NCBI GenBank assembly: GCA_030616775.1
Contig: JAUWWQ010000025.1
Location: 1-59,452 of the forward strand
Source: Planctomycetota bacterium
Lineage (GTDB): Bacteria; Planctomycetota; Phycisphaerae; UBA1845
Direction of reading: 5' to 3'
Length of the DNA stretch: 59,452 nt
The translations under genes were made by a program, and so were the position numbers. The notes beneath the pieces are model-generated. The model was not told the DNA's origin and ran no database searches. It was given only the letters and a program-made list of their open reading frames with translations. Of this stretch, positions 10,499 to 57,998 are shown piece after piece. Each line of letters opens with the position of its first letter. Positions within the stretch are counted from its first letter, which is position 1.

Positions 10499-10858
10499 CT
10501 ACTGAGTATTCTTCCTGGACTTTCGCATGCAGAGCGAGCCCGGTACGGCCCTGGGGGCAGTCAGGAAGCCACAACCGGACAATCCTGCGTCAAAGGGTAC
10601 AGAACAAAACGCCTCGGCGTATGTTCCGGCTAAGAGCGGGGAATCGAACAGGCTGATGACGATCCCGATGATCGCGAATCTTGCGGCCATATTATGGCTC
10701 CGCCATTTTTCGAAAAGGCCCTCCAATAGATTGAGTTGATCGGCTGACCAACGCTGCTCAATACGCGCGCGAGTCGGAGTCTCATACACAAAGGCAACCT
10801 GTCGAGGGCCCAGGTGGGCGAATGATCTCTCGAGCCACCGGACCTTAGAGTTAGTCAT
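10499..10858 (-). CDS. small hypothetical protein, possible membrane segment
   Basis: 119 residues from ATG 10856-10858 (MTNSKVRWLERSFAHLG...). A longer frame runs upstream to 10960 but that part is not protein-like. One hydrophobic stretch (AARFAIIGIVISLFDSPLLAG, about residues 57-77) could be a membrane segment. Family unknown. Directly upstream of, and nearly abutting, the 107-residue frame. Confidence 0.35.
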   Translation of the reverse strand: MTNSKVRWLERSFAHLGPRQVAFVYETPTRARIEQRWSADQLNLLEGLFEKWRSHNMAARFAIIGIVISLFDSPLLAGTYAEAFCSVPFDAGLSGCGFLTAPRAVPGSLCMRKSRKNTQ

Positions 10859-24783: not shown

Positions 24784-25959
24784 TTATTGGCCGCTCGTCG
24801 GCCCGGCTGTAGCCTGATCAACGACCGCGCGAAGGCGAGCCGCCGCTTTGACCGTGTCCGCCTGAGCAATCACGGACGTGCAGACGCAAAGGCAGTTCGC
24901 CCCTGCGGAGAGGACCTCGGCGGCGTTGTGCTCGTCGATACCACCGATCGCGGCTAGCGGTAGCGATGTGAGCCTCCGGGCCGCCGCCAGCGTCTGCGGG
25001 CCGGCGATGTGATCCTGTGGTTTTGTGGCTGTTGCGAACATCGGCCCGACCGCGATGTAGTCCGGTGCCTCGCCTGCGGCAGCTTCCACCTGCTCTATGT
25101 CGTGCGTGCTGACACCGACCAGGAAGGTTGACGGAACGATTCTCCGGACGGCCGCGATGGATAGATCATCCTGGCCGAGGTGAACGCCATCCGCACCGGA
25201 AAGTGCGGCGATGTCCGGCCGGTCGTTGACCATGAACATGGTGTCATGATCGTGGCATAGTATGCTCAGCCGTTTCGCCCGATCCAGCAGCTCGCGATCC
25301 GACAGATCCTTTTCACGAAGCTGCAGGCAATCGGCTCCGCCGCGAATCGCGGCCTCCGCCGTCGCCAACCACTCCCCACAGCACGCCGATTCCGTCAGGA
25401 TCACATAAAGGCGAACATGGCCGAATCGCTGCGGCGCAGTTGCGGTCAGGCTGAGCCGCCGTTCCAGCTCATAGCCACGGTAACGGATCTTCTCAACCGC
25501 AGCCGCAAAGCCCGGGTCGATCGTCTTGCCATATTCCTCAACGGCCCGCAAGGCCTCGCTCAGCCGCTTCCCGGCTGCCAGAGCCACGTGCAGCGCATCT
25601 GCCCGTTGATACTCCGCAGGCGTCCCAACTTCACAGCCGACGTCACCCACGATGTCACGGGCGCGAAGCAGAGAATCTCCGAAATCACCCGAGCCGCGGG
25701 CTTTAGCCCGCGCGGACTTACCGCCCGAGCCGCGGGCTTTAGCCCGCGCGGACTCGCCCGGTGCCTCGGGTCCTGAGCGCCCCACAAACTCCGAAACCGC
25801 CTGCCCCAGCGCGTGCCGAATCTCTTTGATCGCAGCCGAAAGACTCGCATCATCAAGCCCCAACCGGGCATACTCCTCCATCACCCGCAGCGCCTCCCGC
25901 GCACGGTTCAAATTGGCATCGATGATGCGTATGGCGGTGTGGTCAGGCGTGGGCATCAT
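24784..25959 (-). CDS. thiE: ThiD2-ThiE fusion: HMP-phosphate kinase-like domain plus thiamine-phosphate synthase
   Basis: 391 residues, cytosolic thiamine synthesis. The N-terminal part (RIIDANLNRAREALRVMEEY, then KEIRHALG, RDIVGDVGCE and KRLSEALRAVEEYGKTID) is the ThiD2 domain, which in characterised relatives phosphorylates HMP phosphate. The C-terminal ThiE barrel couples HMP-PP to thiazole phosphate and shows LQLREKDLSDRELL, VNDRPDIAALSGADGVHLGQ, VGVSTHD, DYIAVGPMFATATK and AIGGIDEHNAAEVL. Residues about 70-90 are foreign: two 12-residue units of SARAKARGSG type encoded by a duplicated REP palindrome, placed between the conserved ThiD2 helices. Phase is kept, so the gene is probably functional. 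No TPP riboswitch motif is seen upstream. Two adjacent ATGs could serve as start. Confidence 0.9.
   Translation of the reverse strand: MMPTPDHTAIRIIDANLNRAREALRVMEEYARLGLDDASLSAAIKEIRHALGQAVSEFVGRSGPEAPGESARAKARGSGGKSARAKARGSGDFGDSLLRARDIVGDVGCEVGTPAEYQRADALHVALAAGKRLSEALRAVEEYGKTIDPGFAAAVEKIRYRGYELERRLSLTATAPQRFGHVRLYVILTESACCGEWLATAEAAIRGGADCLQLREKDLSDRELLDRAKRLSILCHDHDTMFMVNDRPDIAALSGADGVHLGQDDLSIAAVRRIVPSTFLVGVSTHDIEQVEAAAGEAPDYIAVGPMFATATKPQDHIAGPQTLAAARRLTSLPLAAIGGIDEHNAAEVLSAGANCLCVCTSVIAQADTVKAAARLRAVVDQATAGPTSGQ
25690..25751. repeat. tandem REP palindrome inside thiE
   Basis: Two copies, 25690-25715 and 25726-25751, exactly 36 bases apart, each reading CGAGCCGCGGGCTTTAGCCC followed by GCGCGG. 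The core CGCGGGC-TTTA-GCCCGCG is a perfect hairpin. The 36-base period equals 12 codons, so the insertion leaves the frame intact. Confidence 0.85.
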
Positions 25960-30348: not shown

Positions 30349-31395
30349 CTAAACCAGAATGACCGTCTCTGCTGAACGGGGCCGGACTCTCCCGACGACC
30401 GCCGCGCAACGAGCACGATGCTTCCTCAACCGTTCAACAAGCCGTTCCGCGTGATCCGGCGGTACGGCAATCAGCAGGCCGCCGGAGGTCTGGGCGTCGG
30501 CCAGCACCTTAACGAGCGTCTCGTCGACACCCTTCGCGGTGAAGCGGTCGCCGAGGTATTCGAGGTTGTCCTTATGGATGCGCGTTACAATGCCATCGCC
30601 GGCCAGTCGTAGTGTACCCTCCAGCAGAGGTACACTGGCGGCCTCGATCTCGATGGTGACACCGCTGGCATCAGCCATTTCGTGGGCGTGACCGACCAGA
30701 CCGAAGCCGGTGACATCGGTCACCCCGCGCACGCCGACTTCCAGCATGGCCTCGCAAGCCCCGGCGTTCAGATCGGTCATAACGTCAATTACCTCGGCCA
30801 GATCGGACTCGCCGATTTTGCCCACCTTAGCAGCCGTGGTCAGGACTCCGGTTCCAATCGGCTTTGTTAAGACCAGGACGTCGCCGACCTTCGCCGCACC
30901 GTTGGTGTGAATGCGATCCGGATGCACCAGGCCGGTTACGGATAATCCATATTTGATTTCGCTGTCGCGGACGCTGTGCCCGCCCGCCACAACCGCCCCG
31001 GCGGCCAAGACTCGCTCCGCACCCCCGCGGAGAATCTCGACGAGGAGCCCCACCGGCAGGTCCTTGTCGGGGAAGCCGACGATGTTCAGGACGCAGAGCG
31101 GACGGGCACCCATCGCATATATGTCCGACAGGCTGTTGGCTGCGGCGATTCGGCCAAAGGTGTAGGCGTCGTCCACTAGCGGCGGGAAGAAGTCGAGCGT
31201 GGTCACCACAGCCGTGGATGCGTCCAGCTTGTAGACGCCGGCGTCGTCGAAATGGTCCACCCCCACAAGCAGGTTCGGATCCGTCACGTTCGGTAGTCCG
31301 CGCAGCACCTGCGCCGTTGCTCCGATGGGGAGCTTGCCTGCTCAGCCGGCGCAACTGGCGTAGTCGGTCAGGCGAGTCTTGTAGGGTTCATTCAT
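30349..31395 (-). CDS. selD: selenide, water dikinase containing selenocysteine (UGA at codon 18)
   Basis: 348 residues if the in-frame TGA at 31342-31344 is read as selenocysteine. Makes selenophosphate from selenide and ATP for Sec-tRNA synthesis. A simple stop-to-stop call would begin at 31308 and lose the catalytic end. From ATG 31393-31395 the peptide is MNEPYKTRLTDYASCAG-U-AGKLPIGA, which aligns with the catalytic YSHGAGCGCK of E. coli SelD: U18 falls on the catalytic Cys17 and K21 on Lys20. The rest is canonical: GVDHFDDAGVYKL, FGRIAAANSLSDIYAMGARP, GGHSVRDSEIKYGLSVTG, TDVTGFGLVGHAHEMA, DAQTSGGLLIAV. Two hairpins follow the UGA. It implies the organism decodes UGA as Sec, though selA/selB/selC are not in the window. 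Confidence 0.93.
31300..31344 (-). promoter_or_regulatory. Sec codon with candidate bacterial SECIS hairpins
   Basis: On the reverse strand the UGA (31342-31344) is followed by GCTCC-CCATC-GGAGC (31333-31319) and then GCGCAG-GTG-CTGCGC (31314-31300), both perfect stems. The second has a G-first apical loop about 34 bases after the UGA, within the spacing usual for bacterial SECIS elements. Which hairpin binds SelB is an inference. Confidence 0.6.
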
Positions 31396-37567: not shown

Positions 37568-37919
37568 TGGAGGCGGGGGGAATCGAACCCCCGTCCCGCG
37601 ACGGCTCCGGAAGCGCTTCTACGTGCGTAGTCGGTCTTTTGCATCTCGGGTCGGTGAACGCCGGCCGACAGGCTTTGGCCTTCCCCAGCCCGACTTTTGT
37701 TTCGCCCGTGTGCGGTCAGACATCACGCACGGGCTAGCCCACTAGTCGGCGCTTCGCAGGATAGCGGGCATCTCCTGGTCAGCGGGCTACCTACTTTTAG
37801 GCAGCCATGGCATACGAGTAGTTGCCATTTGTGGTTTCGTCAGGTGTTTTACGAGGCCTCCTGACAACCTCGGCACGCCGCACCTCCTTCAACTCGCCCG
37901 GTCGAATCCATTCGCCCCC
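37568..37919 (-). ncRNA. ssrA: tmRNA (transfer-messenger RNA)
   Basis: 352 nt. Rescues stalled ribosomes by adding a degradation tag. The 5' end reads GGGGGCGAATGGATTCGACC, the standard tmRNA start, and its GGGGGCG pairs with CGCCTCC at the 3' end (one G-T pair) before discriminator A; CCA is not encoded. The T arm reads GGGGGTTCGATTCCCCC. The tag frame (37797-37847) ends in PDETTNGNYSYAMAA followed by TAA. The first tag residue is probably the preceding ACA (Thr) or nearby; the exact resume codon is not certain from sequence alone. Confidence 0.95.
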
Positions 37920-55586: not shown

Positions 55587-57998
55587 ATGAACCGAAGCAT
55601 TGCAACGATGGCACTCGTCTGTCCGGCCATGGTCCTGCTCGGCGTCAGTCAGCTCGCTCATGGCGAAGGTGGGTCGATCGTGGGTTGGGGGTCTCAGGTC
55701 GTCGTCGCCCAGGAGGATCTGACCGATCTTGTCGCAGTCGCGGGCGGCAAGGAGCATAGTCTGGCTTTGAAGGCCGACGGGTCGATCGTGGCGTGGGGGA
55801 GCAACGTTAACGGGCAATGCAGCGTCCCGGTGCCGAATACCGATTTCATCACCGTCGCTGCGGGCGGGTACCACAGTCTCGGGCTGAAGGCCGACGGGTC
55901 GATAGTGGCATGGGGAACGAACAACCACGGGCCATGTGACGTCCCGGCGCCCAATGGCGACTTCATCACCGTAGCGGCGGGTTGGTACCACAGCCTCGGC
56001 CTGAAGGTTGACGGCTCGATCGTGGCGTGGGGAGACAACGGCGTCGGCCAGTGCAACGTCCCGGCGCCGAATGCCGACTTCGTGGCCGTCGCGGCGGGCA
56101 CGTCCCACAGTCTCGGTCTGAAGGCCGACGGCTCGGTCGTGGCATGGGGATCGAACATCCAGGGGCAATGCGACGTCCCGGCGCCCAATGGCGACTTCAT
56201 CGCCGTTGCGGGCGGCGGGGGGCACAGTCTCGGGCTGAAGGCCGACGGGTCGATCGTGGCGTGGGGATTGAACATGTACGGCCAATGCAACGTACCGGGG
56301 CCGAACACGGACTTCGTGGCGGTTGCGGGGAGCGGCGGGTACCACAGTCTCGGCCTGAAGGACGACGGCTCAATCGTGGCGTGGGGATCGAACTACTACA
56401 GTCAGTGCAACGTCCCGGCGCCAAATATCGGGTTCGTCGCTGTGACGACTGGCGGGTACCACAGTCTCGGCCTTAAAGACGACGGCTCGATCGTGGCGTG
56501 GGGAAAGAAATCCTACGGCGAATGCGACGTCCCGGCCCCCAACGCCGACTTCGTCGCCGTCGCGGTGGGGCTATTCCACAGTCTCGGCCTGAAGGCCGAC
56601 GCCTCGATCGTGGCTTGGGGATGGAACGGGTACGGGCAATGCAACGTCCCGGCGCCCAACAGCGATTTCGTCGCCGTTGCGGCCCACGCGCACCATAGTC
56701 TGGGCCTCAAGGCTGACGGTTCGATCGTGGCGTGGGGATGGAACAGCGACGGCCAATGCGACGTCCCGATCCCCAATGCCGGATTTGTCGCTGTGACGAC
56801 GGGCGGGTACCACAGTCTCGGGGTGAAGGCCGATGGCTCGATCGTGGCGTGGGGGTGCGGATACTACGACTACGGGCAATGCAATGTCCCGGTGCCCAAT
56901 GACGACTTCACCGCCGTGGCGGCGGGCAGTTACCACAGTCTTGGTCTCAAGGCCGACGGCTCCATCGTGGCGTGGGGTCGGAACGACCACCGCTAATGCA
57001 ATGTACCGGCACCCAACAACGGTTTTATTGCCGTCGCGGCGGGCGGGCGGCACAGTCTCGGGCTGAAGGCCGATGGGTCGATCGTGGCATGGGGATCGAA
57101 CACCTACGACCAATGCGGCGTCCCGACGGCGAGTCCCTGTTTCACTGCCGTCGCGGCTGGGCCGTCCTATAGTCTGGGCCTCAAGCCCGTTGGCAGCCCG
57201 GACATCGACGGCGACGGCATGGTCGATGCCTGCGACAACTGCCCGCAGGACGATAATCCCGATCAGGCAGACTCCGACGGCGACCGTCTCGGCGATGCCT
57301 GCGATCCTTGCTTCAATGCCTCTCCACCCATCATGCCCTCACGGGGGGAAGGCTATCCGAAGATTCGCTATATCTCCCTGGTACCGCCCAATCCGGGGTG
57401 GCAGACGGCTTTGAGGGTCACCCTAACCAATTTACCGGCGCCGTTTGACGGACTTGACGGCACCAGGATGTGGGTCGGCGAGCCGCGGCAAGTCAGCGAG
57501 AACGCCGGCAAGATTGTGCACACACCAGGGTTCCTTGACTTTATGGGTGCCAACCTGCAATGCACACCACACTGCATGGATTGGGGAGCTGTGGGGCCCC
57601 TTCACGTGACCGATGACGAGATCATTCCCGGCGCCCTTTACGAGATCGAGGCCATCGGCTGCCAGTGCGACTTCGGTGTCGAGAACAGTTACTCGGCGCC
57701 GTTTACGATAACCGCCAGCATTTGGGGCGATCTGGTGAGGACATGTGCGGTCATTCCGTGCACACCGCCGGATGGAGTCGTGAACGTCACCACCGATGTC
57801 ACGGCGTGCGTGGACAAGTTCAGGAACTTGGAGGGCGCGGTGCTAAAGTCCAGGGCAGACATCGAGCCCAACTTCCCGGACTGGCTGGTGAACATTGCAG
57901 ACGTGACCTATGTCCTGGATGCGTTCCGCGGGTTCGCCTATCCGGCGGCGCAAACGCCTCCGCCACCCGGCTGGTCCGGCCCGACCGGATGTCCATAA
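55587..57998 (+). pseudogene. secreted RCC1-repeat (beta-propeller) protein interrupted by an in-frame TAA
   Basis: Start ATG 55587 follows GGAGGTG and opens a signal peptide (MALVCPAMVLLGVSQLAHG). About 12 or 13 RCC1-type repeats of about 39 residues follow, each like [20 protein letters not shown] then VAWGSNIQGQCDVPAPN. At 56994-56996 (codon 470, 11th repeat) a TAA stands where the other repeats have CAA (Gln, in GQCNVPAPN). Reading continues in the same frame with [20 protein letters not shown], a further repeat, a thrombospondin-3 repeat ([26 protein letters not shown]) and a C-terminal domain ending with [14 protein letters not shown]-like [18 protein letters not shown] single C-to-T change explains the break. 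Alternatively the second part is a separate short ORF. Confidence 0.75.

What the first reader, a model, noticed from the sequence alone, without database searches (positions are those of the whole stretch)
31300..31395. SelD is itself a selenoprotein; its 5' end is hidden by UGA
The frame upstream of the apparent selD start continues through an in-frame TGA to an ATG at 31395. The peptide YASCAG-U-AGK aligns with the catalytic YSHGAGCGCK of E. coli SelD, and two perfect hairpins follow the UGA. Gene callers would start the gene at 31308 and lose the catalytic residues.
Basis: partly seen in the sequence, partly recalled or inferred. Interest (0 to 1): 0.6.

Follow-up and report, generated by a model that had tools for sequence, protein, structure and literature searches.

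The report
SelD that itself contains selenocysteine
This planctomycete gene makes an enzyme (SelD) that activates selenium and probably itself contains selenocysteine, written as an in-frame UGA 'stop' that gene finders would mistake for the end of the reading frame; this is a known kind of gene, but the genome also carries a second, cysteine-type SelD fused to a cysteine desulfurase.

Summary
On the minus strand, an ATG at 31395 opens a frame that crosses one TGA (31344-31342) and runs to the TAG at 30351-30349, giving a 348-residue SelD. The UGA falls at the catalytic Cys17 of E. coli SelD. All 37 planctomycete relatives covering the site keep TGA; more distant ones have TGA or TGC/TGT. A hairpin 27-43 nt after the UGA, with a GU-start loop, is kept by compensatory changes and fits the published bSECIS model. 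The GTG at 31308 that an ORF finder picks is the loop of that bSECIS. The genome has selA and selB side by side, and an fdhA with its own UGA and hairpin. Intact selC was not found in this draft genome, only its 3' 35-38 bases near a recombinase gene; a same-genus genome has intact selC. Sec insertion is therefore very likely. Sec-containing SelD, also with a CxxU motif, is already described, so this is a new member of a known kind. The unusual extra is a second SelD in the same genome: a Cys-type NifS-SelD fusion from a separate clade.

The parts
30349..31395 (-). selD coding sequence, 348 residues, with one in-frame UGA read as Sec (stop TAG at 30351-30349)
   Evidence: TIGR00476 366.7 bits, Pfam AIRS and AIRS_C; frame checked
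31342..31344 (-). UGA codon 18, the Sec codon; aligns with catalytic Cys17 of E. coli SelD
   Evidence: alignment; TGA in 48 of 66 relatives and TGC/TGT in the other 18
31345..31395 (-). hidden N-terminus MNEPYKTRLTDYASCAG, with Cys15 forming a CxxU motif with Sec18
   Evidence: conserved in relatives, changes mostly at third codon positions
31299..31315 (-). bSECIS apical stem-loop GGCGCAG-GUG-CUGCGCG, 27-43 nt after the UGA
   Evidence: 5 of 7 pairs show change on both sides, 0 of 500 shuffles as high; local MFE -10.5 kcal/mol, 6 of 200 shuffles fold as well
   Evidence: covariation no better than shuffles (401 of 500 as high)
31306..31308 (-). GTG that an ORF finder takes as the start of selD; it is the loop of the bSECIS hairpin

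Best explanation
The gene is a standalone selD whose product, selenophosphate synthetase, carries selenocysteine at residue 18. When the ribosome meets the UGA, SelB bound to the bSECIS stem-loop (27-43 nt downstream, inside the coding sequence) delivers Sec-tRNA(Sec). The Sec then acts as the catalytic residue in the flexible N-terminal loop, with Cys15 three residues before it (CxxU) as the likely redox partner. Shown here by sequence: the frame, the conservation of TGA, the exchange with Cys codons, the covarying hairpin, and selA, selB and a UGA-containing fdhA in the genome. Inferred: the Sec residue itself, SelB binding, the role of Cys15, and that an intact selC lies in a gap of the draft assembly.
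For: Frame through the UGA. SelD family match that needs the extension. TGA at this codon in 48 of 66 relatives, including all planctomycete rows covering the site; TGC/TGT in the other 18. Hairpin covaries in the TGA set, and its stem fails in the Cys set (5, 5 and 1 of 17 paired at pairs 31-39, 30-40 and 29-41). It fits the published bSECIS limits: 3-9 nt loop, G in the first two loop positions, 16-37 nt spacing (PMC13188914). SelA 580.8 bits and SelB 360.4 bits, both over cut-off, adjacent on C45. fdhA on C36 with one UGA at the active site and a strong hairpin, z -3.8. 24 of 30 related genomes have tRNA-Sec over the cut-off, among them G002 of the same genus. TGA is a normal stop in this genome: selB, nadC, queC and the fusion selD end in TGA, so the code is not simply reassigned.
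Against: No intact tRNA-Sec was found in the 4.45 Mb draft; the best match to a same-genus selC is only its 3' 35-38 bases. No protein-level evidence of Sec. In the window alone the 57-nt region after the UGA does not fold better than shuffles (z -0.2).
Confidence: 0.94

Rival explanations
1. The lineage has lost tRNA-Sec recently through disruption of selC by a mobile element, so the UGA now ends translation and the Cys-type NifS-SelD fusion alone makes selenophosphate.
For: Only the 3' end of selC was found, about 2 kb from a serine-recombinase gene fragment at the end of contig C24. A Cys-type SelD fusion is present.
Against: selA, selB, the bSECIS and the fdhA UGA site are all intact. In G002, same genus, an intact selC coexists with a similar 3' fragment 2.7 kb away, which is the usual outcome of integration at a tRNA gene. 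The draft has 108 contigs and is 97.8% complete, so one missing 95-bp gene is not surprising.
Confidence: 0.04
2. The true start is GTG 31308 and the upstream frame is coincidence or a remnant.
For: A mechanical ORF starts there.
Against: That start lies in the bSECIS loop, would remove the catalytic residue, and leaves the conserved upstream frame, the third-position bias and the invariant TGA unexplained.
Confidence: 0.01
3. UGA is read as another amino acid (Trp or Cys) by a reassigned code or by leaky readthrough.
For: None specific.
Against: Several genes of this genome end in TGA, and the UGAs found inside genes sit at known Sec sites with bSECIS-type hairpins.
Confidence: 0.01

Closest known systems
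Sec-containing bacterial SelD (selenophosphate synthetase, TIGR00476)
   Same: Same family, Sec at the same catalytic position, bSECIS directly downstream; [quoted passage not shown]
   Different: Nothing essential; it is a planctomycete member
Single-domain SelD with a CxxU motif (GOS survey, PMC2398784)
   Same: Cys three residues before Sec; reported for about 5.6% of single-domain Sec-SelDs in the GOS data
   Different: Here CxxU is in 47 of the 48 TGA relatives found, and the planctomycete clade is uniform for it
NifS-SelD fusion (Geobacter sp. FRC-32, PMC2398784; two instances in PMC4561486)
   Same: The second SelD of this genome has the same domain order, cysteine desulfurase then SelD
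   Different: The fusion here has Cys (GLGCACK), whereas the Geobacter one has CxxU; and it coexists with a separate Sec-SelD

Membership tests
Sec-containing SelD (TIGR00476) | SelD family score over curated cut-off, covering the N-terminal catalytic loop | tested here: met
   366.7 bits against 125, profile 1-310 of 311
Sec-containing SelD (TIGR00476) | In-frame UGA at the catalytic Cys position, with Cys homologs | tested here: met
Sec-containing SelD (TIGR00476) | Sec residue present in the protein | not testable with these tools
   needs mass spectrometry or 75Se labelling
bSECIS element | Stem-loop with 3-9 nt loop, G in the first two loop positions, 16-37 nt from the UGA | tested here: met
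   loop GUG, 33 nt between UGA and loop; model limits from PMC13188914; covariation
bSECIS element | Bound by SelB | not testable with these tools
   binding assay needed
Bacterial Sec-decoding trait | selA and selB in the genome | tested here: met
Bacterial Sec-decoding trait | selC (tRNA-Sec) in the genome | tested here: inconclusive
   intact gene not found in the draft; 3' end found; present in 24 of 30 relatives
Bacterial Sec-decoding trait | At least one further selenoprotein gene | tested here: met
   fdhA with UGA at C36:155735-155737

The most novel reading that the evidence does not exclude
This bacterium keeps two working SelDs with a division of labour. The Cys-type NifS-SelD fusion draws selenium from cysteine/selenocysteine breakdown and starts the system, while the Sec-type SelD, which cannot be made until some selenophosphate exists, takes over when selenium is plentiful. 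That would be a feed-forward switch and would answer how a Sec-containing SelD is first made.
Probability: 0.25. Interest if true: 0.5.

Novelty: new member of a known kind. Interest (0 to 1): 0.25.

Why it matters
As a gene it mainly corrects annotation: a standard ORF caller starts selD inside its own bSECIS loop and loses the catalytic residue, and the same risk applies to the planctomycete relatives that share the UGA. The wider interest is the pair of SelDs in one genome. A Sec-containing SelD needs its own product to be made; an organism with a Cys-type SelD beside it offers a direct way to test how the loop is started. The uniform UGA across a planctomycete clade of 38 rows also suggests lasting selection for Sec there.

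Tried and rejected
Tested whether both hairpins are bSECIS parts: only the second covaries. Looked for selC by Rfam model, DNA similarity and patterns in the own genome: only a 3' piece. Tried to place the missing selC next to the TadG-like gene at the end of contig C21, because its distance to the contig end matches the TadG-selC distance in G002; the bases upstream of the gene do not align with G002, and C21 carries two TadG-like copies, so I drop this as evidence. Tried synteny of the gene downstream of the selC fragment (DUF2891): its G002 ortholog lies 4.4 Mb along the record from selC, so it gives no help. Considered contamination for the NifS-SelD contig: GC of that stretch is 60.7% against 59.5% for the window and GC3 is similar (69.1 and 74.1), so there is no sign of it, but it is not excluded. 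Looked for a report of planctomycete Sec-SelD in the papers held: no direct mention in those checked.

Full report
What is in the sequence. On the minus strand an ATG at 31395 opens a frame that reaches TGA at 31344-31342 after 17 codons and goes on to TAG at 30351-30349. Read through, it is a 348-residue protein that matches NCBIfam SelD (TIGR00476) at 366.7 bits from profile position 1 to 310 of 311, and Pfam AIRS and AIRS_C. The TGA residue aligns with the first Cys of E. coli SelD YSHGAGCGCK (3u0o). A mechanical ORF finder starts the gene at GTG 31308. An in-frame TGA lies 19 codons before the ATG.

Conservation. A scan of one genome per species returned 68 relatives. At codon 18, of the 66 that cover it, 48 have TGA, 11 TGC and 7 TGT. 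Every planctomycete row (37) has TGA. The residues around it are conserved (RKIRLTDYASCAG-U-AGKLP), and base changes in the hidden part fall mostly on third codon positions. This rules out a chance open frame. A maximum-likelihood tree puts the window SelD in a clade of 38 rows, planctomycetes plus one row named only 'bacterium', all UGA (support 100/96); its nearest row is L019 at 78% identity.

The recoding signal. The second hairpin (31315-31299) has seven pairs, five of them with change on both sides across 32 sequences, a covariation score above all 500 shuffles, and the signal falls when the partner strand is slid. Its loop is GUN in 44 of 47 distinct TGA sequences. The Cys homologs do not keep the stem. 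The 33 nt between UGA and loop and the G-first loop fit the consensus in PMC13188914. The first hairpin is not supported. The GTG that a gene caller would use is exactly the loop of the bSECIS. In the window alone the whole 57-nt region does not fold better than shuffles (z -0.2); the local hairpin does moderately (z -2.1). The case rests on covariation, not on energy.

The Sec machinery. The window lies in a draft genome of 4.45 Mb, 108 contigs, 97.8% complete. selA (C45:42144-43499, 581 bits) and, next to it, selB (360 bits) are present and over their cut-offs. A formate dehydrogenase alpha gene on C36 has one in-frame UGA at the active-site position (HQARN-U-HSATVASLATSFGRGAMTNHW) followed by a hairpin GUCGCCA-GUU-UGGCGAC. 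An intact tRNA-Sec was not found. The best DNA match to the same-genus selC is its 3' end, 35 bases identical, at C24:2195-2229, about 2 kb from a contig end that cuts a serine-recombinase gene. In G002, same genus, selC is intact at C1:137801-137895 and a longer partial copy of its 3' part lies 2.7 kb downstream. Partial 3' copies of a tRNA gene are what site-specific integration at that gene leaves (general knowledge). I infer that selC in this genome is the target of such an element and that the intact copy falls in an assembly gap; this is not shown. 24 of 30 genomes in the search of relatives have selC over the cut-off.

A second SelD. The genome also encodes a 735-aa protein at C69:8824-11031, with a cysteine desulfurase domain (Aminotran_5; NifS model 487.7 bits, under that model's cut-off of 530.75) followed by a full SelD with Cys (GLGCACK) and no internal stop. 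Its SelD part is 46.5% identical to the window SelD and groups with Cys-type fusions of Bacteroidales, Anaerolineales, Krumholzibacteriota and Eiseniibacteriota at support 100/98. 16 of the 18 Cys-type relatives found have a cysteine desulfurase domain in the same frame upstream. So the two SelDs are old paralogs, or one was acquired; they are not recent duplicates. NifS-SelD fusions were described as very rare (PMC2398784, PMC4561486). In the papers I could read I found no case of a NifS-SelD Cys fusion beside a Sec-SelD in one genome, but I did not search this exhaustively.

A motif remark. In the Sec type the extra Cys sits three residues before Sec (CAGU, CxxU); 47 of 48 TGA relatives have it. 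In the fusion type it sits two residues after the catalytic Cys (GCAC). The sample was drawn by similarity to the window protein, so these fractions are not population estimates.

How it most likely works. SelB bound to the bSECIS delivers Sec-tRNA(Sec) at UGA 18, and the Sec is the catalytic residue of SelD. Because SelD makes the selenophosphate needed for Sec, a Sec-type SelD can only be made when selenophosphate is already present. The Cys-type fusion could supply the first selenophosphate. This last step is inference.

Novelty. Sec-containing SelD is among the most widespread bacterial selenoproteins (PMC1794560, PMC13188914, PMC4561486) and CxxU forms are known (PMC2398784). The finding is correct and well supported but of a known kind. 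What deserves a second look is the genome with two SelDs.

Noticed in passing
L145:5825-8032 (own genome C69:8824-11031, +): Second SelD: a 735-aa NifS-SelD fusion with Cys at the catalytic site, in the same genome as the Sec-type SelD
   Followed up: partly
L121:2192-2229 (own genome C24): 3' end of selC, 35 bases identical to the same-genus selC, about 2 kb from a contig end that cuts a serine-recombinase gene; looks like an attachment-site copy left by an integrative element
   Followed up: partly
L131:7802-7896 and 10520-10595 (genome G002): Intact selC plus a partial copy running from before the anticodon to the 3' end, 2.7 kb downstream, in a same-genus genome; selC seems to be an integration site in this group
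   Followed up: partly
L146:3198-6305 (own genome C36:153197-156304, -): Formate dehydrogenase alpha gene with an in-frame UGA at the active site and a strong bSECIS-like hairpin
   Followed up: yes
L121:1985-2043: A tRNA-like fragment (41.9 bits to the tRNA family, 59 bases) about 150 bases before the selC fragment; a second tRNA piece at the same island edge
   Followed up: no
window 25560-25780: The thiamine-phosphate synthase-like ORF (24784-25959) holds two copies of the peptide SARAKARGSG in its N-terminal half; opposite or shifted frames read SPRGLKPAA-like repeats, perhaps a dispersed repeat inserted in frame
   Followed up: no
window 55755-57125: Tandem array of a 117-base unit, about 11.5 copies (RCC1-like peptide repeats by eye: [14 protein letters not shown])
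   Followed up: no
window 37568-37919: tmRNA gene with tag peptide GNYSYAMAA
   Followed up: no
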